Below are positions 1-10,017 of a stretch of 12,832 nucleotides of DNA, piece after piece. How positions within the stretch are numbered: the first letter of the stretch is position 1; every line of letters starts with the position of its first letter. The DNA comes from Rubrobacteraceae bacterium. GTDB lineage: Bacteria; Actinomycetota; Rubrobacteria; Rubrobacterales; Rubrobacteraceae. Below the pieces are notes generated by a model. The model worked only from the letters and a program-made list of their open reading frames with translations, searched no databases and was not told the DNA's origin. Both the position numbers and the translations under genes were made by a program. The stretch covers positions 1 through 12,832 of the forward strand of contig JACCSM010000138.1 in NCBI GenBank assembly GCA_013698525.1, in the 5' to 3' direction.

Positions 1-2
1 AC

Positions 3-1445
3 GCGGTAATGGTCAACTCCAACCCTGAGACCGTCTCGACCGACTACGATACCTCTACACGCCTGTACTTCGAGCCGCTCACAGCGGAGCACGTGCTCGA
101 GGTCATAAGGCGCGAAGAGCCTGAAGGCGTCATCCTGCAGTTCGGCGGCCAGAGCCCCCTGAAGCTAGCGCACGAGCTAGAGGCGGCGGGAGCACGGATC
201 CTCGGCACCTCCCCCGACGCCATAGACCTCGCCGAAGACCGCTCCAGGTTCGGACGGCTCGTCGCGGAGCTTGGCATCCCACACCCAAGGTTCGGGACGG
301 CATCGAAGGCCGAGGAGGGGAGAGAGGTGGCGCGCGAGCTCGGCTACCCGGTCGTCGTGCGGCCCTCTTACGTCCTCGGCGGGCGCAGGATGGAGATCGT
401 CTACAACGACGATGACCTCGACCTCTACATCAGGACCAGCGTGAGCGCGGGCCCTGGGCACCCGACCCTTATCGACAAGTTTATGGAGGACTACACCGAG
501 GTCGACGTGGATGCCGTCTCCGACGGGAAGGACGTTTACGTCGGAGGGATAATGGAGCACGTCGAGGAGGCCGGCGTTCATTCAGGCGACTCATCCTGCG
601 TGACGCCCCCGATCACGATCCACCGGGAGTTGTTGCGGAGGATCGAAGACTACACGAGACGGCTGGCGCTCTCCGTAGGAGTCGTCGGGCTTATGAACGT
701 GCAGTTCGTCGTGAGGGGCGACGACGTGCTCGTGATCGAGTGCAACCCCCGCGCCTCGCGTACCGTGCCCTTCATCTCCAAAGCGACGGGTGTGCCGCTG
801 GCCAAGATAGCGACCCGAGTTCTCCTTGGTGAGAAGCTCGAGGACATGAGGCTACGGGCTTCCACCAACGGGCACTTCTCCGTCAAGGCGCCAGTCTTCC
901 CGTTCGACAGGTTCGCTGACGTGGATCCTCTGCTAGGGCCCGAGATGCGCTCTACGGGGGAGGCGATGGGGATTGACCGCACATTCGGCGGCGCCTTTGC
1001 GAAGGCGCTAACGGCGGCTGGGCAGGAGCTTCCCGTCTCCGGCCGCGTCTACATCTCCGTCTCCAACAGGGAGAAGCGGGCCGTCGTGCTCATAGCCAGG
1101 GCATTCGCCGACCTAGGGTTCGAGATCTCCGCTAGCGAGGGAACGGCTGAGGTTCTCAAGAACAACGGGCTGCCGGTTATGATCGTGCCCAAGATAGGGG
1201 AGCTCGGCGAGGATGTGTTAGGCCTCATAGAGGCTGGTGGTGTAGACCTGATCGTAAACACCCCTTGGGGTCGCGGGCCGCGCACCGACGGGTACCTGAT
1301 CCGGCGCCGGGCCCTCATGCACGGCGTCCCATGTATCACCACCCTAGCAGGGGCCGCGGCAGCCGTTCAGGGCATAGAGGCAAGGGTCCGTGGCGGAACC
1401 AGACGCGTGAACTCGCTCCAGGGCCTCTACGCGGCGAGAGCATGA
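3..1445 (+). CDS. carB: Carbamoyl-phosphate synthase large subunit, C-terminal part (5' truncated by window edge)
   Basis: Makes carbamoyl phosphate from bicarbonate, ATP and glutamine-derived ammonia for pyrimidine and arginine synthesis. About 480 residues are visible, against roughly 1,070 for a whole CarB, and the frame is open to the left edge, so the true start lies outside the window. Seen in order: the motif MVNSNPETVSTDYDTS near the left edge; the second ATP-grasp domain (RPSYVLGG, HSGDSSCVTPP, NPRASRTVPFISKATGVPL); and a C-terminal methylglyoxal-synthase-like allosteric domain at about bases 1045-1420 (VYISVSNREKR, NTPWGRGPRTDGYLIRRRA). In the CarB family this last domain binds UMP or ornithine effectors. 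The stop overlaps the pyrK start as ATGA, which suggests translational coupling. No lesion is visible in this part. Confidence 0.97.
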   Translation, partial: AVMVNSNPETVSTDYDTSTRLYFEPLTAEHVLEVIRREEPEGVILQFGGQSPLKLAHELEAAGARILGTSPDAIDLAEDRSRFGRLVAELGIPHPRFGTASKAEEGREVARELGYPVVVRPSYVLGGRRMEIVYNDDDLDLYIRTSVSAGPGHPTLIDKFMEDYTEVDVDAVSDGKDVYVGGIMEHVEEAGVHSGDSSCVTPPITIHRELLRRIEDYTRRLALSVGVVGLMNVQFVVRGDDVLVIECNPRASRTVPFISKATGVPLAKIATRVLLGEKLEDMRLRASTNGHFSVKAPVFPFDRFADVDPLLGPEMRSTGEAMGIDRTFGGAFAKALTAAGQELPVSGRVYISVSNREKRAVVLIARAFADLGFEISASEGTAEVLKNNGLPVMIVPKIGELGEDVLGLIEAGGVDLIVNTPWGRGPRTDGYLIRRRALMHGVPCITTLAGAAAAVQGIEARVRGGTRRVNSLQGLYAARA

Positions 1446-2176
1446 AATTCTACAAAGTAAAGGTCGAAGAGCGAGAGGAGCTTGGCTCCTACACCCTGCT
1501 CCGCTACCGCTGGTCCGATGGACCCGTAGAGCCGGGGCAGTTCGTTATGGCGCGGGCCGCCGGTTACCCCGAGACCCTCGACCCCTTCCTCGCCCGCCCC
1601 TTCTCCTTCTACGACTACGACGGCGAAATGGCGAGCCTCCTCTTCGAGGTGCGGGGCCGTGGTACTGCGCTCCTGGATCTCGCACCGACCATAGAGGTGA
1701 CAGCCCCTCTCGGAAAAGGCTTCCGTATCGAGCCAGGGCTGGGGCGGGCAGCCCTTCTCGGAGGCGGCATAGGCGTCGCGCCGCTCAAGATTCTGGGCCG
1801 CCGGCTGGACGCCGCGGGCGTTCCCCACGACGTTTTTCTCGGGTTCGCCGACGCAAAGTCGGCGGTCGTCGCCCGTGAGTTCCAAGGAGCAGAGGTGGCG
1901 ACGATGGACGGCTCAGAAGGGACTCACGGGACCGTGCTCGATCCCATAGATACCCTCGAGGACTATGGGGCGGTCTACTCCTGCGGGCCAAACCCCATGC
2001 TGGCCGCGGTCAAGCTCGCGGCAGGGGAGAACAGTCTCTGCCAGCTCTCCGTGGAGGAGAGGATGGGGTGCGGGAACGGCTCGTGCAACGGGTGTGTGGT
2101 CCCCGTGCGCGGAGGCGGCTATATCAGGTCCTGCATCGAAGGACCCGTCTTCCGGGCGGAGGTTCTGGCGTGGTAG
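1442..2176 (+). CDS. pyrK: Dihydroorotate dehydrogenase B, electron-transfer subunit (FAD/2Fe-2S)
   Basis: Passes electrons from dihydroorotate oxidation in the class 1B PyrD to NAD+. The protein is 244 residues, normal for PyrK. The ferredoxin-reductase fold is marked by the flavin motif RPFSFY (residues 52-57) and the nucleotide-binding loop GGGIGVAPLK (107-116). The C-terminal 2Fe-2S site has four cysteines, C210, C215, C218 and C231, in the usual C-x4-C-x2-C-x12-C pattern after SVEERMG. The ATG at 1442 overlaps the carB stop by 4 bp, and the Shine-Dalgarno sequence is weak, which fits coupling. Finding it with pyrD tells that this organism uses the NAD-linked heteromeric enzyme rather than a quinone-linked PyrD. 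Confidence 0.96.
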   Translation: MKFYKVKVEEREELGSYTLLRYRWSDGPVEPGQFVMARAAGYPETLDPFLARPFSFYDYDGEMASLLFEVRGRGTALLDLAPTIEVTAPLGKGFRIEPGLGRAALLGGGIGVAPLKILGRRLDAAGVPHDVFLGFADAKSAVVAREFQGAEVATMDGSEGTHGTVLDPIDTLEDYGAVYSCGPNPMLAAVKLAAGENSLCQLSVEERMGCGNGSCNGCVVPVRGGGYIRSCIEGPVFRAEVLAW

Positions 2177-3102
2177 TGCGCGAGCAGAAAACCGGTGTCG
2201 ACCTAGCGGTCGAACTGTGCGGGCTCATGCTGCGGACGCCCCTGATCCCGGCCTCGGGAACACTCTCCAGAGAAGCTCTCGGAGAGGTCGAAGGCGTCTA
2301 CGGGGCGATGCTGCCGAAGACGGCGACCCCAGTGGCAAGGGCCGGCAATCCGCCGCCCCGCGTCGCCGAGACGCCCGCCGGGATGGTCAACTCGATCGGC
2401 CTCCAGAACCCCGGCGTCGAGGTCTTCTTGCGGGACCTCGACGCGTTCGACCTCGGGGTCCCCATCTTCATCTCCGTGGCCGGCGACACCGTCGCCGAGT
2501 TCGCTTCCCTCTGCGAGCGTCTCGCCGACGACGAACGCATCTGTGCCGTCGAGCTGAACCTCTCGTGCCCCAACGTGGAGTGCGGGGGCCTGGCCTTCTG
2601 CGCGGGACCCGCCTCCGTCGAAGAAGTGGTAGCGGCCTGCCGCGCCGCGGTTTCAGACAAACCCATCCTGGCCAAGCTCACGAACGGAGGTGTCGTCGAG
2701 AACGCCCGCGCCGCCGAGGCGGCCGGCGCCGACGCGCTCACCGTCATAAACACCCTCCCGGCGCTCACAGTCGACGCCCGCATGCGCAAGGTGCTCGTAA
2801 AGGGCGGCCTCTCCGGCCCCGCAATAAAGCCCGTCGCGCTCCGCGCCGTATACGACGTATCAGGCGTGGTCAGGGTACCTGTGGTAGGGAGTGGGGGGGT
2901 AACGAGTGGAACGGATGTGGCCGAGTTCATGCTCGCGGGCGCGACGGCGGTCCAGGTTGGCACAGCAAGCTTCGTAAGGGACCCGTACGAAATTCTCGAC
3001 GAGTTTACGGTCTACCTGAAGGAAAGCACATTGAGCGCAAAAGAGCTGACGGGAGCCTTACGCGGCGTTCGCCCCGTGCTAACAGGAGGTGAGGACATAT
3101 AG
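2170..3102 (+). CDS. pyrD: Dihydroorotate dehydrogenase B, catalytic subunit (class 1B)
   Basis: FMN enzyme oxidising dihydroorotate to orotate, the fourth step of UMP synthesis, working with PyrK. Counting from the GTG at 2170, the protein is 310 residues, the usual length. Visible: the FMN/substrate lysine in MLPKT (K50), NSIGLQNPG (74-82), the NLSCPNV loop with the class 1 active-site cysteine C133, GGLSGPAIKP, and the phosphate-binding end VGSGGV...AVQVGTA. Where many relatives have KLSPNV it reads KLTNGG, a small deviation. Start choice: GTG 2170 has GGAGG 8 bases upstream and overlaps pyrK by 7 bp. GTG 2176 is possible, but its spacing is poorer. The frame also extends upstream through pyrK but without family similarity there. 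Confidence 0.95.
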   Translation: MVVREQKTGVDLAVELCGLMLRTPLIPASGTLSREALGEVEGVYGAMLPKTATPVARAGNPPPRVAETPAGMVNSIGLQNPGVEVFLRDLDAFDLGVPIFISVAGDTVAEFASLCERLADDERICAVELNLSCPNVECGGLAFCAGPASVEEVVAACRAAVSDKPILAKLTNGGVVENARAAEAAGADALTVINTLPALTVDARMRKVLVKGGLSGPAIKPVALRAVYDVSGVVRVPVVGSGGVTSGTDVAEFMLAGATAVQVGTASFVRDPYEILDEFTVYLKESTLSAKELTGALRGVRPVLTGGEDI

Positions 3103-3128
3103 TGGGAAGAATGCGAGATAGTCCCTAA
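3084..3128 (+). other. Orphan Shine-Dalgarno and 8-codon stub at the end of pyrD
   Basis: The last codons of pyrD contain AGGAGGTGA (3084-3092), a perfect ribosome binding site. A GTG at 3102, overlapping the pyrD stop, opens a frame of only eight codons (with an ATG at 3111) that ends at TAA 3126-3128. Such a site normally serves the next overlapping operon gene, and pyrF or pyrE often follow pyrD. No such gene follows here. I infer a vestigial gene junction left by deletion or rearrangement. Chance occurrence is possible. Confidence 0.4.
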
Positions 3129-3175
3129 CCTCACTCTCCGCCATCCGGCCCCCCGCTGCCTTACCGTCACACGTA

Positions 3176-3187
3176 TTCATACCGAGT
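3176..3187 (+). repeat. 12-bp direct repeat, copy 1
   Basis: TTCATACCGAGT, repeated exactly at 3370-3381. The two copies frame a segment of 182 bases that contains the 3232-3264 hairpin. Confidence 0.5.
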
Positions 3188-3231
3188 ACGTATAAATGGG
3201 ACCGACTTCGGGCTGCAGGCACACCTAAATC

Positions 3232-3264
3232 GCCGTGCAGAAAGGATGGACCTTTCCGCACGGC
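3232..3264. terminator. Imperfect hairpin, candidate bidirectional terminator
   Basis: Arms GCCGTGC-A-GAAAGG and CCTTTC-C-GCACGGC pair over 14 positions with a single A/C mismatch, around a 5-base loop. No long T-tract follows on either strand; the minus direction has only a short ATTT. It lies about 130 bp after pyrD in a convergent gap, so termination or a small structured element are both possible. Confidence 0.4.
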
Positions 3265-3369
3265 TTGGCATCAGGTGTCCTTTCCGAAGACGGCTCGGGG
3301 GAAGGGTTGGCTATGCGTGTGCCACCTCCCGTTCGACCAATACGAAAAGTGCTGTAGGACCTCCTCTAC

Positions 3370-3381
3370 TTCATACCGAGT
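3370..3381 (+). repeat. 12-bp direct repeat, copy 2
   Basis: TTCATACCGAGT, identical to 3176-3187. The flanking bases differ between the copies apart from a few matches. Confidence 0.5.
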
Positions 3382-3433
3382 CCGCTTGAAGAGGAGCACG
3401 TTCTGGCTGCGTGCACGCCGATGCCCTCCTATG

Positions 3434-3461
3434 CGTCATTCCCGCGCAGGCGGGAATGACG
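3434..3461. repeat. Perfect palindrome of the ATTCCCGC...GCGGGAAT type, possible terminator
   Basis: A perfect 12-bp stem, CGTCATTCCCGC paired with GCGGGAATGACG, encloses the 4-base loop GCAG. It fits the general pattern ATTCCC-N8-GGGAAT known for small dispersed repeats such as neisserial dRS3, and similar REP-like palindromes occur in many genomes. It begins 40 bp downstream of the rhodopsin stop on the minus strand. There is no T-tract, so a terminator role is inferred from position only. Confidence 0.55.
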
Positions 3462-3500
3462 TATAGGCCGAGGCCCGATATCTACGCGAATTTCAGTGGA

Positions 3501-4226
3501 TCAACTAACCCTTGAAGCCTGCATCTTCCCGCCGGTGAGGTCCGAGAGGGCGTCGCGGCTGGTCAGGAGAAGGAAGCCGAAGCCGACCTTCGCTAGCAGG
3601 TCAAGAACCATGAAGACGAAGATCTCCGTGGTGATGCCAACCGCTCCGAAGCCCTCACTCCCCAGCAGGAACACGACCGGATAGAACGCCCAGAGAACAA
3701 CCGTCAGACCCGCGAGGGTGTTGAAGACCCGGGCGACGGCGGGAGACCTTCCGCGGGCCGCTTGCAGCAGCCTCGTGACGACCAGGTAAAGGACTGCGAC
3801 GAGCGCGGCCGTGCTGATCAGGAACAGTACCACTTGGAGGAAGGCGTTGGTTGAGAACCCGGCGCCGAGCCCCGTGAGTATCATTAGCACGTCGAGGCCG
3901 ATAATGCCTGAGATCAGGCCGGCGCTTTGCCCCGGCCTGATCAGCGCCAGCAGCGCGAGGTCGAGCAGCAACAGGGGCGTCGTGAGCAGCCAGTCTATAT
4001 AACGCGCCCAGTAGAACTCCCTGGTTTCGCCGTCCGCAGTGGTCAGTATCGTGGACCCTTGGCCCGTCGTCATAACGAGGTAGGAGATGAAGGCGATCAG
4101 GGTGATGCTAGCGGTGATCACGAAGAAATATCTGCTCCCCTGTGGCGCTCTCAGCCCCATCAGAATGAAGGCGACCGTTCCCAGCGCCATTCCCACTGTC
4201 CCAATGCTAAGCCATACCGTACTCAT
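3501..4226 (-). CDS. Bacteriorhodopsin-like light-driven proton pump
   Basis: Seven-helix retinal protein of 241 residues that should move protons out of the cell on illumination. Helix C reads RYIDWLLTTPLLLLD: R75, D78, T82 and D89 match bacteriorhodopsin R82, D85 (acceptor), T89 and D96 (internal donor). Helix G has the counterion D209 and the Schiff-base lysine K213 (MVLDLLAKVGFG). Helix F has W179, Y182 and P183. E191 and E201 match the proton-release glutamates E194 and E204, and D112 matches D115. L86, at the colour-tuning site, suggests green absorption. The position of W138 is F135 rather than glycine, so a xanthorhodopsin-type carotenoid antenna site is unlikely. The start has AGGAGAGGAG upstream and overlaps the damaged asp23-like frame by 4 bp (ATGA). 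It looks fully functional, and resembles the archaeal-type rhodopsin known from Rubrobacter xylanophilus (from memory). Confidence 0.96.
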   Translation of the reverse strand: MSTVWLSIGTVGMALGTVAFILMGLRAPQGSRYFFVITASITLIAFISYLVMTTGQGSTILTTADGETREFYWARYIDWLLTTPLLLLDLALLALIRPGQSAGLISGIIGLDVLMILTGLGAGFSTNAFLQVVLFLISTAALVAVLYLVVTRLLQAARGRSPAVARVFNTLAGLTVVLWAFYPVVFLLGSEGFGAVGITTEIFVFMVLDLLAKVGFGFLLLTSRDALSDLTGGKMQASRVS

Positions 4227-4537
4227 GCTTCTCCTCTCCTAGCTTTCGCCCGTGCTCGAGATGCGTCGTAGACGTATCCCCCGACGGCGTCCGGTAAATT
4301 TTCCGGCGATGCGCTGGATTTTTCACGGTCTTGCTCCTCGTTCGGGAAGTAGATGTCCGAGATAGTCACGTCGACCTGCGCAACCCTCAGGCCCGTCATC
4401 CTCTCCACGCTCCTGACGACGTTGTCGCGGACCGCTTGCGTCAACTGCTGTATCGGCTCGCCCTACTCCGTGGACACCACGACTTTCGCAATCGAGGTCG
4501 AGCCGTCGAGCTTTGAACTCCTAGCTTTCTCGCTCAT
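4223..4537 (-). pseudogene. Asp23/Gls24-family protein gene with an in-frame amber stop and shortened N-terminal half
   Basis: Read through the stop, the frame gives 104 codons: MSEKARSSKLDGSTSIAKV, then VVSTE-stop-GEPIQQL, then AVRDNVVRSVERMTGL, VDVTISDIYFP and a charged tail. The second half is the typical Asp23/Gls24 end, where an alternating EYG...P...A..VR.NV....E.MTGL pattern precedes V.V.V.DV.F. The TAG (4463-4465) sits exactly where the family normally has Tyr (EYG), so one C-to-G change of TAC would create it. The usual N-terminal half (around 60 residues, V..IA..A..EV.GV) is missing between GSTSIA and KVVVST, suggesting an internal deletion. A restart at TTG 4444 would give 73 residues but has no good Shine-Dalgarno. 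Asp23-type proteins are envelope-stress-associated in Firmicutes; a role with rhodopsin is unknown. Readthrough or sequencing error could restore it. Confidence 0.75.
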
Positions 4538-4689
4538 TGCCTATCGCCTGTTCTCCTATGTATAGGTTTGTCATTTCAATATAGGATCGCTTCGTGTGTG
4601 CCGCTGTAAGACTGGCTACAGTCCCCTTCGGTTAAGATCATTGGGCGGCCGGGAGATCCCGACCGCAAGGCGCTGAAGGAGGTGGGAGC
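4538..4689. promoter_or_regulatory. Divergent control region between the rhodopsin unit and crtY-blh
   Basis: All transcripts of the cassette must start in or near these 152 bp. An AT-rich patch at 4555-4585 holds CCTAT-GT-ATAGG (4555-4566), an inverted repeat, and a second ATAGG at 4581-4585. On the minus strand this patch gives -10-like words (TATACA, TATATT) but no good -35. On the plus strand TAAGAT (4633-4638) is -10-like. A second inverted repeat, CGGGA-GA-TCCCG (4650-4661), lies in the crtY leader. The crtY ribosome site AAGGAGGT begins at 4676. Operator function is inferred from symmetry and position. Confidence 0.5.
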
Positions 4690-5862
4690 ATGGACATAGC
4701 GATACTCGGGGCCGGCTGCTCGGGCGCTAGCCTCGCCTATTTCCTCGCCGACGCGGGGTTTCTGGGCCGGATCCACCTCTTCGACCGCCGGACAGACTTC
4801 TCCCAAGAGCAACGCTGGTGCAGCTGGGGTCCCGTGCCGAAGCGGCTTTCCGGCCTCGTTAGCGCGTCCTGGGATCGGTGGAGGATCGTCTCCGGGAACG
4901 CGGAGGTTGTGTGCTCCCTGCCGGAGCGTCCGTACCTCCACGTCCACGCGCCGGAGTTCTACGAGAGAATGCATGACAGACTCCGGCGTCATCCGAACGT
5001 GCGCCTGCACCTCGGATGCAGTGTGGAATCCGTCACTCCCACCGGGCTGCGGGGGGAGATCCGGCGAGTAGCCGCGGACTTCGGAGACTACGACGTGGAC
5101 CTCGTCTTCGACGGAAGACCCTCAGCGGAGAACATGGAAGCTACGCGCGGTTCGGGTGAGATAAGCCTTCTTCAATCCTTTGCGGGCCTCGTGGTCGAGT
5201 CGTCCGAGGCCGCCTTCGATCCCGATACCGTCACCCTCATGGATTTCGGCGCCGGGGACTCGCCCGAACTATCCTTTGTCTACGTCCTCCCCTTCTCTGC
5301 CCACCGGGCTTTGGTGGAGAGTACGGCGTTCTCCGGAGACGGGATAGCGTACGACGAGCACGAGAGACGCGTCGAGAACTACCTCAAAAAGCTGGGGGCG
5401 GGCGCGTACACCGTGGAGTCTCGGGAGAGCGGATGCATCCCGATGACGACGAGGAAATTGCCGCGCATGTCGGACGAGCGGCACATCATGATCGGGGCGG
5501 CCGGGGGCGCGACCCGCCCCTCGAGTGGCTATGCCTTCGTCCATATCCTCCGCCAGAGCGAGACTCTAGCCGGATCCCTGATGCGAGGGGAGCATACGTG
5601 GCGGAGGCCGATCCCACGCAAATACGGACTTCTCGACGCGGTCTTCCTGGACGCGCTGGAAGACTCGCCCGCGCACGCCCGCGAGAGCTTCCTGCGGATG
5701 TTCGGGCGTGTTCCGACCGGCGCGCTAGTTCGGTTCCTGTCAGGCGACAGTTCCCTGTGCGACGACCTGGCGGTGGTCGCCGCCCTAGATAAGACACCGT
5801 TCGTCGCAGCGGCGGCGCGACGGGTGAAAGCTTCCATGCTCGGTGCCGAGGAACGCCGATGA
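4690..5862 (+). CDS. crtY: Lycopene beta-cyclase, CrtY type
   Basis: Cyclises both ends of lycopene to beta-carotene, the precursor of retinal. The protein is 390 residues, normal for bacterial FAD/NAD(P)H-dependent CrtY. Visible: an N-terminal dinucleotide-binding motif GAGCSGASLAYFLADAG (7-23), the QRWCSWG block (41-47), FVYVLPFSAHRALVEST (196-212) with the conserved glutamate E210, CIPM (249-252), and the second flavin block IGAAGGATRPSSGYAF (268-283). The ATG has a strong AAGGAGGT site. The stop overlaps blh by 4 bp (ATGA), so the two enzymes are probably made together. The upstream genes crtE, crtB and crtI are absent here and must lie elsewhere. Confidence 0.95.
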   Translation: MDIAILGAGCSGASLAYFLADAGFLGRIHLFDRRTDFSQEQRWCSWGPVPKRLSGLVSASWDRWRIVSGNAEVVCSLPERPYLHVHAPEFYERMHDRLRRHPNVRLHLGCSVESVTPTGLRGEIRRVAADFGDYDVDLVFDGRPSAENMEATRGSGEISLLQSFAGLVVESSEAAFDPDTVTLMDFGAGDSPELSFVYVLPFSAHRALVESTAFSGDGIAYDEHERRVENYLKKLGAGAYTVESRESGCIPMTTRKLPRMSDERHIMIGAAGGATRPSSGYAFVHILRQSETLAGSLMRGEHTWRRPIPRKYGLLDAVFLDALEDSPAHARESFLRMFGRVPTGALVRFLSGDSSLCDDLAVVAALDKTPFVAAAARRVKASMLGAEERR

Positions 5863-6866
5863 GCGTGGCAAAAGTAACGTATCCTTCACGTCTCTCATAC
5901 GACCTCGTGCCGTGGATCTCAGCCGCCACGGCAACCGTCTGCGCCGTGATCTTCGACTCGAGCCTCTCGGGCCTCTGGTTCTTGCCGTGGACGCTTGGAC
6001 TGCTCCTCTTCGGACTACCCCATGGCGCCTGCGACCACCTCGTCGCATCGAAGTTGACGGGGCGAAGGTCCACGGGCGACGCGCTCGGCTTCGTGCTTTT
6101 CTATCTGGGCGCAGCCGCTGTCGTTTTCGAGTTGTGGATGGTGGATGCCACGCTCGCACTGGCTCTCTTCCTCGCCCTGACGGCCTGGCACTGGGGGAGC
6201 GCCGACGCAGCACACCGCAGAGAAGAGGAGGGCCTGGCCCCTTTCTTCATCGCGGCGGCGGCAAGGGGGGCGTTGGTGATATCGGCACCTGTGGCCTTCC
6301 ATCCCGAACAGTGCTTGTCCGCCTTCGCCGGCATCGTGTCGGTCTTCGGAGAGGCTCCGGCCTGGAACGTGGAGCGGCTTGCGACCCTGGCCGTCGCTGG
6401 CCTCGTCCTCTCCGTTATCGTGGAAGCGTCGGTAATTTTTTCCGACCTCGTCCGACGGTGCGCACGCTCCGCACTCCGCGGGGCGGTGGAGATCCTGCTA
6501 CTGATCGCTCTGTATTCTCTGGTATCCGCCATTACCGCGGTCGGTGCCTACTTCGTCTTCTGGCACGCTTGGAGGCACGTGCTCCGGGTGAGCGAGCTGC
6601 TAGAAGAACCCGGCAGCCGTCGCGAGAGGAGGCTCGTCTCCACTCTTGTCGGATACCACGCGAAGGCCCTTCCCCTCACGCTCCTTAGCCTCGCGTTGAT
6701 GATCGTCCTGACCCTCGTCTCCGGCCTGCAGGAACCTCAGCAACTCTTGGGGATCTACATAGTACTCATCTCCGCACTCACCGCCCCGCACGCCACACTC
6801 ATCTCCATCTGGGATATCGGAGCGGACGCGATCGACAGAAGGTGGGATTCGAGAACAGGGTCCTAA
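5859..6866 (+). CDS. blh: Beta-carotene 15,15'-dioxygenase, Brp/Blh family
   Basis: Integral membrane iron enzyme that splits beta-carotene into two retinals, the rhodopsin chromophore. The protein is 335 residues with several hydrophobic segments. The family histidine motifs are all present: GLPHGACDH (H55, H60), AWHWGSAD (H111), FVFWHAWRH (H236, H240) and TAPHATLISIWD (H311). These include the residues thought to hold the iron. The start ATG overlaps the crtY stop, with GAGGA a few bases upstream. The order crtY-blh opposite a rhodopsin gene strongly supports retinal supply as its job. No lesion is visible. Confidence 0.94.
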   Translation: MSVAKVTYPSRLSYDLVPWISAATATVCAVIFDSSLSGLWFLPWTLGLLLFGLPHGACDHLVASKLTGRRSTGDALGFVLFYLGAAAVVFELWMVDATLALALFLALTAWHWGSADAAHRREEEGLAPFFIAAAARGALVISAPVAFHPEQCLSAFAGIVSVFGEAPAWNVERLATLAVAGLVLSVIVEASVIFSDLVRRCARSALRGAVEILLLIALYSLVSAITAVGAYFVFWHAWRHVLRVSELLEEPGSRRERRLVSTLVGYHAKALPLTLLSLALMIVLTLVSGLQEPQQLLGIYIVLISALTAPHATLISIWDIGADAIDRRWDSRTGS

Positions 6867-8460: not shown

Positions 8461-10017
8461 ATGACCTTGCCCGAATGGCTCGACCCCCTGTACGGTCCTG
8501 ACGAGATGCGGGCGGCGGATCGCTTCGCCATGGAGCAGCGTGGCATCTTCGAGCTGGAGCTAGCCGAGAAGGCCGGAGCCGGGTTGGCTTCCGCGGTGGA
8601 GGCCGTCGCTGAGCCTGGGCCTATTCGCATTGTAGTGGGTCCGGGCAACAACGGCGGAGATGGCCTGATCGCCGCCAGGCTCCTGCGGAAGGCGGGGTAC
8701 GTCGTGGATGTGCACGCCCCGCTGCCGTTGGATGGTCTCGAGGGCGTGCCGCGTACCAACCTAGACCGCCTCCCCGGGCCGGCGCCGCAGACGTTCGACG
8801 TCGCGCTGTTGCGAGACTCCGGAGCCATAGTAGACGCGCTGCTCGGAACGGGATTCGAGGGAGCCGTCGGCGAGCCGCTTGATGAAGTGATCGCGGCGAT
8901 CAACGCTCAGGGGGCCCCGGTGGTGGCCGCTGACGTGCCGTCGGGGGTGAATGCGGCCACCGGAGAGGTCGAAGGCCCCGCTGTCGAGGCGACCGTTACT
9001 TCGACAAACCATGCCCCGAAGATCGGGCTGTACGTGGGGCGCGGAGCCAGGCACGCGGGCTCGGTGCGAACGGTGGACATCGGCATCCCGCCCGGCGACC
9101 CTGGTGCCAGCCTCGCCGGGCTTACGAGCCGACGAGTCATGCAGACGATCCCGGCCCGATCCCGTCGTGGCTCGAAGCTTGAGGCAGGGACCGTGCTGGT
9201 CGCCGGCGGGGCGCGGAACTCAATCGGCGCTCCTTCCCTGGCGGCACTGGCAGCGATGCGCGGCGGCGCCGGTCGGGTTCGCTTGGCGGTTCCGACCTCG
9301 ACCGCGACCGTCGTAAGCTCACGCATGCTCGAAGCGCTGGTGCACGGCCTGCAAGAGGATCGGAACGGATGCCACACCGAGGATGGCGCGGAGACGGTGG
9401 TGCGGCTCGCGATGCGGAACGGGGCTCCCGCCGAGACCATCGTGCTTGGGCCGGGCATGGGGAATAGTCCGGGCGAGGTCTCGTTCGCGCGAGCGATCAG
9501 GCGCGCGGACGCGTTCCCGCTGGTCACCACGGCCGACGCCTTGTCCGCCACCGGGGAGGCGCTGGAAGAACTTGCGGGGCGTTCGGGACATACGGTTATT
9601 GTGGCCGGCCCTGACGGGACGGCGCGTCTGCTCGGGGAGGACCCCGCCAGGGTCGAGGGACACCGGCTCGCAGCGGCGCGGACTCTGGCGGATCGCAGCA
9701 AGTCCGTGGTATTGCTCGAAGGAGACAACCCTATCGTCGTGTCACCCGGCGGTCCCTGCGCGGTGGGCCCCGGCGATACCGGTGCGCTCGCCACGAATGG
9801 GACCACTGACGTGCTCGCCGGCCTGGTCGGTGCACTGCTTTCCAAAGGATTAGAGCCGTTCCCGGCAGCGGCCGCGGGCGTCTTCGCGCGCGCCGAAGCA
9901 GGCAAGCGAGCCTCCCGGCACGTGGGAGGAGCAGACTACACGATAGCTTCCGACTTCATCGATGCTCTGCCCGAAACCCTGCCGCGTTCGATGGACCTGC
10001 CTTCTCGCACGACGTAG
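8461..10017 (+). CDS. nnrD: NnrD-like bifunctional NAD(P)H-hydrate repair protein with a degenerate dehydratase domain
   Basis: Family role: repair of damaged NAD(P)HX by an N-terminal epimerase and a C-terminal ADP-dependent dehydratase. The protein is 518 residues, normal for the fusion. The epimerase half (about 1-215) keeps GPGNNGGDG (60-68), DALLGTGFEG (125-134) and ADVPSGVNAATG (157-168) with D158, and K187. The usual TVTF before it reads TSTN. The kinase-like half (about 230-505) aligns throughout but departs from consensus: DADALN is TADALS (357-362), TPHPGE is VAGPDG (381-386), LKG is LEG with E420, the GGxGD loop is NGTTD (446-450), and the later AHG is ARA (476-478). Only D450 survives among the usual key residues. 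The frame is unbroken. I infer an intact or near-intact epimerase fused to a pseudo-dehydratase or altered enzyme. AAGGA lies 9 bases before the ATG. Confidence 0.85.
   Translation: MTLPEWLDPLYGPDEMRAADRFAMEQRGIFELELAEKAGAGLASAVEAVAEPGPIRIVVGPGNNGGDGLIAARLLRKAGYVVDVHAPLPLDGLEGVPRTNLDRLPGPAPQTFDVALLRDSGAIVDALLGTGFEGAVGEPLDEVIAAINAQGAPVVAADVPSGVNAATGEVEGPAVEATVTSTNHAPKIGLYVGRGARHAGSVRTVDIGIPPGDPGASLAGLTSRRVMQTIPARSRRGSKLEAGTVLVAGGARNSIGAPSLAALAAMRGGAGRVRLAVPTSTATVVSSRMLEALVHGLQEDRNGCHTEDGAETVVRLAMRNGAPAETIVLGPGMGNSPGEVSFARAIRRADAFPLVTTADALSATGEALEELAGRSGHTVIVAGPDGTARLLGEDPARVEGHRLAAARTLADRSKSVVLLEGDNPIVVSPGGPCAVGPGDTGALATNGTTDVLAGLVGALLSKGLEPFPAAAAGVFARAEAGKRASRHVGGADYTIASDFIDALPETLPRSMDLPSRTT

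What the first reader, a model, noticed from the sequence alone, without database searches (positions are those of the whole stretch)
3501..6866. Compact divergent rhodopsin and retinal-synthesis cassette in an actinobacterium
A proton-pump rhodopsin (minus) and crtY-blh (plus) share one 152-bp control region. All active-site residues of the three proteins are present. The cassette would turn lycopene into retinal and use it for light-driven proton export. It sits directly beside a housekeeping pyrimidine operon.
Basis: partly seen in the sequence, partly recalled or inferred. Interest (0 to 1): 0.7.

Follow-up and report, generated by a model that had tools for sequence, protein, structure and literature searches.

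The report
Rhodopsin and retinal genes in Rubrobacter
A bacterium of the Rubrobacter group carries a light-driven proton pump next to two genes that make its retinal pigment; this is a known kind of solar-energy cassette, but its gene order and a broken stress gene beside it suggest that this one was put together from separate pieces.

Summary
The cassette is real: a bacteriorhodopsin-like proton pump (3501-4226, minus), a lycopene cyclase CrtY (4690-5862, plus) and a Brp/Blh beta-carotene dioxygenase (5859-6866, plus). The working residues of the characterised Rubrobacter xylanophilus pump (RxR) are all present, and the genome bin (80% complete) has crtB, crtI in two contig-end pieces and polyprenyl synthases. 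It is a known kind of system: R. xylanophilus has rhodopsin-crtY-blh in a row. The claimed shared 152-bp control region is wrong. The two starts are 463 bp apart, with a broken Asp23-family gene (N-terminal part missing, in-frame TAG) between them on the rhodopsin strand. That relic led to something more interesting: in 10 of the 14 rhodopsin-bearing Rubrobacterales genomes whose upstream side can be read, rhodopsin follows a GlsB-Asp23-AmaP-DUF2273 envelope-stress operon, a linkage found in no paper my searches listed. The crtY-blh pair has two lineages in the order; the window has the R. xylanophilus one, five species of its own genus the other. So: an ordinary pump cassette in kind, with a mosaic history. 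Activity was not testable.

The parts
3501..4226 (-). RxR-type light-driven proton-pump rhodopsin, 241 aa; D78/T82/D89 (helix C), E191, E201, D209, K213 (retinal lysine)
   Evidence: PF01036 1.2e-56; best solved relative 6kfq, E 1.4e-80; residue mapping to RxR
4223..4537 (-). relic of an Asp23-family gene: only the C-terminal part of the domain, in-frame TAG at 4463-4465; its frame ends in TGA overlapping the rhodopsin ATG
   Evidence: translation; PF03780 5.8e-7 for the piece after the TAG; PF03780 1.3e-7 with 1 TAG in the genome scan; GC at third positions 0.89 in the domain part, 0.53 in the tail
4538..4689 (.). 152-bp stretch between the relic's ATG and crtY; likely place of the crtY promoter (inference)
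   Evidence: coordinates; no sigma-70 consensus site found
4690..5862 (+). crtY, FAD-type lycopene cyclase (probably beta), 390 aa, lineage 'B' (R. xylanophilus type)
   Evidence: PF05834 2.3e-53; TIGR01790 2.3e-30, below its cut-off; 46% identical to R. xylanophilus CrtY, 36-39% to the 14 others compared in the order
5859..6866 (+). blh, beta-carotene 15,15'-dioxygenase (retinal-forming), 335 aa, lineage 'B'; 4-bp overlap with crtY
   Evidence: PF15461 2e-54; TIGR03753 175.6 bits, cut-off 95.25; H55, D59, H111, H236, H311 in 39 of 39 Blh aligned
4236..4247 (.). 12-bp exact direct repeat, copy 1, overlapping the rhodopsin Shine-Dalgarno; copy 2 at 4518-4529 near the start of the Asp23 relic
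   Evidence: the tool warns that short two-copy repeats are often chance; unexplained

Best explanation
A rhodopsin phototrophy cassette. CrtY cyclises lycopene (made elsewhere in the genome by a GGPP synthase, CrtB and CrtI) to beta-carotene, Blh cleaves beta-carotene to retinal, and retinal binds K213 of the rhodopsin, which exports protons by the RxR/bacteriorhodopsin mechanism (D78 acceptor, D89 donor, E191/E201 release group). Shown: gene families, residues, linkage and presence of lycopene genes in the bin. Inferred: activity, expression and energy use. The cassette also looks like a mosaic (inferred): rhodopsins of the order mostly follow an Asp23-AmaP-DUF2273 envelope-stress operon; here that link is probably reduced to a broken asp23 piece, and a crtY-blh pair of the R. 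xylanophilus lineage stands divergently beside it, next to pyrD, in a species whose closest held relative has none of the three genes.
For: Families; RxR-like solved structure as best match and the mechanism residues conserved; residues invariant in the aligned Blh and CrtY sets kept; crtB, crtI pieces and polyprenyl synthases in the bin; blh in 15 of the 17 rhodopsin-bearing genomes of the order against 1 of the 22 without rhodopsin; rhodopsin-crtY-blh in a row in R. xylanophilus (G014), R. marinus (G028) and G037. Mosaic: types A and B in one clade rejected for CrtY (p 1e-4) and Blh (p 3e-7), both on quick trees; window rhodopsin together with G017, G021 and G024 of its genus rejected, p 2e-5; bases 1-3170 are 90% identical in DNA to G022, which lacks the cassette there.
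Against: No biochemical data. CrtY scores below NCBIfam's curated cut-offs, so its exact product rests on family and context. The genome is a 639-contig bin, 79.8% complete, 4.43% contamination; crtI is seen as two pieces at contig ends, each below the family cut-off. The Asp23 relic is too short to be assigned firmly to the operon paralogue: among 32 Asp23 proteins a stand-alone one ranks fourth by phmmer and second by BLAST, and the bin's own stand-alone copy is 52% identical over 42 residues. A first quick rhodopsin tree put the window with the operon-linked G036 and G034, but the careful tree with more rows and without G034 did not keep that, and a clade with R. xylanophilus is not rejected (p 0.06).
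Confidence: 0.9

Rival explanations
1. The rhodopsin is a light sensor, or CrtY-Blh serve another use of beta-carotene or retinal, rather than a proton pump supplied with its own pigment.
For: No direct assay; blh occurs once in the order without a detected rhodopsin (G004, a 60% complete bin).
Against: The RxR pump residues, including the cytoplasmic donor D89 and the release pair E191/E201, are kept; no transducer family turned up among the window proteins scanned; blh tracks rhodopsin in the order.
Confidence: 0.05
2. The divergent arrangement is one regulatory unit: a single bidirectional control region co-regulates pump and pigment genes.
For: The two arms are divergent and functionally linked; 152 bp without a gene lie upstream of crtY.
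Against: 463 bp separate the starts and a gene relic sits in between; no sigma-70-like site found; in the three relatives with all three genes together they lie on one strand, so divergence is not conserved among the genomes held.
Confidence: 0.3
3. The Asp23 piece has nothing to do with the rhodopsin operon of relatives: it is a fragment of a stand-alone Asp23 paralogue that landed there by chance.
For: Stand-alone Asp23 L153 is 57% identical over 42 residues, and G000's own L119 52%.
Against: Same strand and immediately upstream of rhodopsin, as in relatives; 13 of its best 14 phmmer matches among 32 Asp23 proteins are of the operon type, which makes up 19 of the 32; no AmaP match elsewhere in G000, though about 20% of that genome is missing.
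Confidence: 0.35

Closest known systems
Rubrobacter xylanophilus rhodopsin RxR (PMC6959264; PMC5349596; PDB 6kfq) and its neighbours crtY and blh (Rxyl_2039)
   Same: Same rhodopsin family (60% identical), same mechanism residues, same three genes together, same CrtY/Blh lineage (46% and 40%).
   Different: R. xylanophilus has the three genes on one strand in a row; the window has rhodopsin divergent, with an Asp23 relic in between, beside pyrD.
Rhodopsin plus beta-carotene dioxygenase reported in Rubrobacteria bins of desert soil crust (PMC7901476)
   Same: Same gene pair in the same group, reported there for 11 and 12 bins (passages seen).
   Different: A term search of its main text found no 'operon', 'lycopene', 'alkaline shock', 'carotenoid' or 'gene cluster'.
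Proteorhodopsin operons with retinal-synthesis genes (Sabehi et al. 2005 as cited in passages of PMC7734400)
   Same: Pump and retinal-synthesis genes together.
   Different: In the window no crtE, crtB or crtI lies at the site (that marine clusters carry them is recalled), and the pump is bacteriorhodopsin-like with Asp as donor.
Asp23-AmaP-DUF2273 alkaline-shock / envelope-stress operon
   Same: A relic of an Asp23 domain stands directly upstream of rhodopsin.
   Different: No GlsB, AmaP or DUF2273 match in the window; the Asp23 piece is broken.

Membership tests
Light-driven proton-pump rhodopsin (RxR/BR type) | seven-helix Bac_rhodopsin family protein | tested here: met
   PF01036 1.2e-56
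Light-driven proton-pump rhodopsin (RxR/BR type) | retinal lysine, Asp acceptor and donor, secondary counterion, Glu release pair | tested here: met
   RxR K209, D74, D85, D205, E187, E197 map to K213, D78, D89, D209, E191, E201; roles from passages of PMC6959264
Light-driven proton-pump rhodopsin (RxR/BR type) | light-driven outward proton transport | not testable with these tools
   needs expression
Brp/Blh beta-carotene 15,15'-dioxygenase | family score above curated cut-off | tested here: met
   TIGR03753 175.6 bits against 95.25
Brp/Blh beta-carotene 15,15'-dioxygenase | His/Asp residues invariant in the family | tested here: met
   H55, D59, H111, H236, H311 in 39 of 39 aligned rows; which of them bind iron was not tested
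FAD lycopene cyclase CrtY | Lycopene_cycl family and dinucleotide-binding glycines | tested here: met
   PF05834 2.3e-53; G7, G9, G12 in 27 of 27 aligned rows
FAD lycopene cyclase CrtY | NCBIfam curated cut-offs (TIGR01790 lycopene cyclase family; TIGR01789 CrtY equivalog) | tested here: not met
   106 bits against 209.5, and 36.7 against 215.2; so 'lycopene cyclase family, probably beta-cyclase' is the safe name
Complete retinal pathway | lycopene-forming genes in the genome | tested here: inconclusive
   crtB 1e-76, over its cut-off; crtI only as two contig-end pieces (positions 1-229 and 330-492 of 504), each below the cut-off; 3 polyprenyl synthase matches, one partial, none proven a GGPP synthase. 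Points to present, but not one unbroken crtI
Asp23-AmaP-DUF2273-rhodopsin operon | intact asp23, amaP and DUF2273 upstream of rhodopsin | tested here: not met
   only a broken Asp23 piece in the window

The most novel reading that the evidence does not exclude
In Rubrobacterales the light-driven proton pump is, ancestrally, part of an Asp23-AmaP-DUF2273 cell-envelope (alkaline-shock) operon: pump and envelope-stress module are expressed together, for instance because pumping protons out makes the cytoplasm alkaline and loads the envelope. The window records the breakdown of this coupling, with asp23 decayed and rhodopsin re-partnered with pigment genes of another lineage.
Probability: 0.4. Interest if true: 0.55.

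Novelty: new member of a known kind. Interest (0 to 1): 0.35.

Why it matters
The cassette itself adds one more RxR-type phototrophy system in the Rubrobacter group. The wider point is the context it exposes. In 10 genomes of six genera, rhodopsin follows an envelope-stress operon, 70-109 bp after DUF2273. That ties a light-driven proton pump to a cell-envelope protein family and makes the two testable together. Retinal synthesis in the order has two separate gene lineages that stand in different relations to rhodopsin, which bears on how such systems are put together by gene exchange.

Tried and rejected
Rejected: a shared 152-bp bidirectional control region (relic in between; no sigma-70-like site). 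Rejected as evidence: the long open frame after the TAG in the relic; 941 of 2000 shuffles had a run of 79 codons or more, observed 78. Not accepted as firm: the relic as a remnant of the operon-type Asp23; it is only likelier. Led nowhere: a genome-contig scan for Blh returned 44 loci, none titled Rubrobacter (the tool says that records very near the window's genome may be left out); Blh against plasmids, no match; Rfam at gathering scores, no match; solved structures by sequence, none for Blh at E 1 or CrtY at 0.001; the hairpin at 3428-3467 as a repeat family, 2 exact copies of its core in the bin. GC content falls to 0.60 at 3001-5000 but the window ranges from 0.585 to 0.696 elsewhere, so it does not mark an insertion. 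Structure prediction and viral-contig scans were not used.

Rows left out: the rhodopsin trees lack G019 and G020 (fragments at contig ends); the careful tree also lacks G034 (broken frame). The Blh tree took 12 of the 44 outside loci and 11 of the 49 proteins. The careful rhodopsin tree took 26 of 120 listed proteins, the CrtY tree 21 of 120. Outgroup G038/G012 was my choice. Type A and B were split on the identity table before the trees; the metagenome members of B were picked by identity. The two rhodopsin tests were named after a first quick tree. In one search one set of identical rows lay on both sides and was left free.
Full report
What is there. The window is one whole contig (G000:C314) of a 639-contig bin, 79.8% complete with 4.43% contamination. 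It starts with carB-pyrK-pyrD and then holds rhodopsin (3501-4226, minus), crtY (4690-5862, plus) and blh (5859-6866, plus), followed by a DoxX-like gene, a small gene without a Pfam match, an NAD(P)H-hydrate repair gene (nnr), a Crp-type regulator and a LuxR-type response regulator. The three cassette genes are secure by family. CrtY is below NCBIfam's curated cut-offs for lycopene cyclases, so the beta-cyclase name rests on Pfam, invariant residues and its pairing with blh.

Pump. The best solved relative is 6kfq; its printed sequence agrees by eye with that of R. xylanophilus P0086. RxR is a characterised proton pump with Asp74, Asp85, Glu187/Glu197, Asp205 and Lys209 as working residues (PMC6959264, abstract and passages; of PMC5349596 I saw the listing and an empty term search). 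They map to D78, D89, E191/E201, D209 and K213; Thr78 maps to T82 and Leu82 to L86. Green absorption near 540 nm is an inference from RxR.

Pigment supply. The same bin has crtB (E 1e-76) next to a C-terminal crtI piece (profile 330-492) at the end of contig C34; an N-terminal piece (1-229) lies at the end of C590, and a longer, weaker relative on C353. That the two pieces are one gene cut by the assembly is an inference. There are three polyprenyl synthase matches, one of them partial. In the 39 genomes held of the order, rhodopsin is found in 17 and blh in 16; 15 have both, G006 and G007 have rhodopsin alone, and G004 (60% complete) has blh alone. In all 16, the best blh has crtY directly upstream on the same strand; a second, partial blh match in G020 was not examined.

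The control region. The starts of rhodopsin and crtY are 463 bp apart. Between them, on the rhodopsin strand, runs a frame from ATG 4537 with one TAG at codon 25. The part after the TAG matches the last third of the Asp23 domain (PF03780 positions 71-107, E 5.8e-7), and the genome scan found the same place with one TAG inside (positions 62-107, E 1.3e-7). The N-terminal half of the domain is absent. The frame ends in a TGA that overlaps the rhodopsin ATG. Codon-position GC looks coding in the domain part (0.89 at third positions) but not in the tail (0.53). This is best read as a broken gene, unless the TAG is a sequencing error, which would still leave half the domain missing.

What the relic points to. 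I read 16 rhodopsin regions and 11 Asp23 regions with single-sequence searches. In 10 genomes (G005, G006, G007, G012, G017, G021, G024, G034, G036, G038) rhodopsin directly follows a run of GlsB, Asp23, a small Asp23-like gene, two AmaP-like genes and DUF2273, on the same strand, with 70-109 bp between DUF2273 and rhodopsin. Exceptions inside this set: G005 and G007 reach a contig end before asp23; no GlsB was found in G012; in G034 the AmaP part is one frame and rhodopsin itself is broken. Names come from PF04226, PF03780 and PF10031, and AmaP from NF033218 below its cut-off. Three genomes (R. xylanophilus G014 and R. marinus G028, named by matching contig lengths; and G037) instead have rhodopsin-crtY-blh in a row and the envelope operon elsewhere. 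G013, G019 and G020 cannot be read because of contig ends. Six rhodopsin-less genomes (G022, G023, G015, G018, G030, G025) have the run up to DUF2273; a seventh, G009, is cut by a contig end. So of 14 readable rhodopsin genomes, 10 follow the operon, 3 are linked to crtY-blh, and the window has the second link plus a piece of an Asp23. Since the species are related, the 10 may go back to one event. In a sample of 396 genomes of the phylum, 28 outside the order had a rhodopsin match, 23 of them over the cut-off; loci came for 16, and none showed these operon genes within up to 1.5 kb. Searches of the paper library for Asp23 with rhodopsin (24 of 25 papers listed), any two of AmaP, rhodopsin, Asp23 and DUF2273 (25 of 25), alkaline shock protein with rhodopsin and operon (0) and Rubrobacter with Asp23 (1) showed, by title and abstract start, no paper on such a link. 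The library is incomplete.

How sure is the relic's origin? Of 32 Asp23 proteins compared (19 of the operon type), the best three and 13 of the best 14 by phmmer are of the operon type, but a stand-alone Asp23 ranks fourth (second by BLAST), and the bin's own stand-alone copy is 52% identical over 42 residues. No AmaP match was found elsewhere in the bin, which fits loss of the operon or its absence from the missing 20%. I put the operon reading at about 0.6.

Mixed ancestry. CrtY and Blh fall into two lineages. Type A is in 14 genomes, including five species of the window's own genus; type B is in R. xylanophilus and the window (46% and 40% identical to each other; 31-39% to type A) and in metagenome proteins. 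One clade of A plus B is rejected for Blh (p 3e-7) and CrtY (p 1e-4) on quick trees. The window's rhodopsin together with G017, G021 and G024 of its genus is rejected (p 2e-5), while a clade with R. xylanophilus is not (p 0.06). A first quick tree had set it with operon-linked G036 and G034; the careful tree did not keep this. Yet pyrD is 88% identical to same-genus G022, and bases 1-3170 are 90% identical in DNA to G022, which then continues with other genes and has no rhodopsin or blh match. The simplest reading is that the cassette was gained in this lineage beside the pyr operon; loss in G022 is possible too. Close relatives of all three proteins (rhodopsin 93%, CrtY 88%, Blh 86%) are listed with the same longest contig of 554,644 bp, and another set with 8,962 bp, so the linkage probably recurs; their order and strands could not be read.

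Known or new. Rhodopsin with beta-carotene dioxygenase was reported in most Rubrobacteria bins of a desert crust (PMC7901476, passages), and R. xylanophilus carries the same three genes in a row. PMC2889829 (passages) already noted that rhodopsins and CrtB/CrtI do not cluster alike in organisms including R. xylanophilus. The cassette is thus a new member of a known kind in a rearranged order. The part that a specialist might not expect is the envelope-stress operon link in its relatives.

Noticed in passing
L024:5590-8852 and equivalent places in nine other genomes: Rhodopsin follows a GlsB-Asp23-AmaP-DUF2273 envelope-stress operon in Rubrobacterales; 10 of 14 readable rhodopsin genomes.
   Followed up: yes
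L033:6336-6919: The rhodopsin of G034 is split into two overlapping frames, so it is broken by a frameshift or by an assembly error.
   Followed up: no
window 8461-10017; L107, L023, L105, L106, L110: A second type of NAD(P)H-hydrate repair gene (nnr), 37-42% identical to the common type, was matched in G000 (two copies), G037, G022, G013 and G017 (partial) of 39 genomes; in G037 it lies about 5 kb from the rhodopsin cassette.
   Followed up: partly
window 4236-4247 and 4518-4529: A 12-bp exact direct repeat brackets most of the Asp23 relic; one copy overlaps the rhodopsin ribosome-binding site.
   Followed up: no
window 3428-3467: A strong hairpin (18-nt arms, 94%) lies between pyrD and rhodopsin; its core occurs twice in the bin. 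Two 50-nt copies, 72% alike, of a repeat lie just before it (3176-3225, 3370-3419).
   Followed up: partly
G006 and G007: Two genomes of one genus have the operon-type rhodopsin but no blh match: retinal source unknown or genes missing from the bins.
   Followed up: no
P0117: A rhodopsin relative of 239 aa carries a precomputed PF01595 label besides PF01036; not examined.
   Followed up: no
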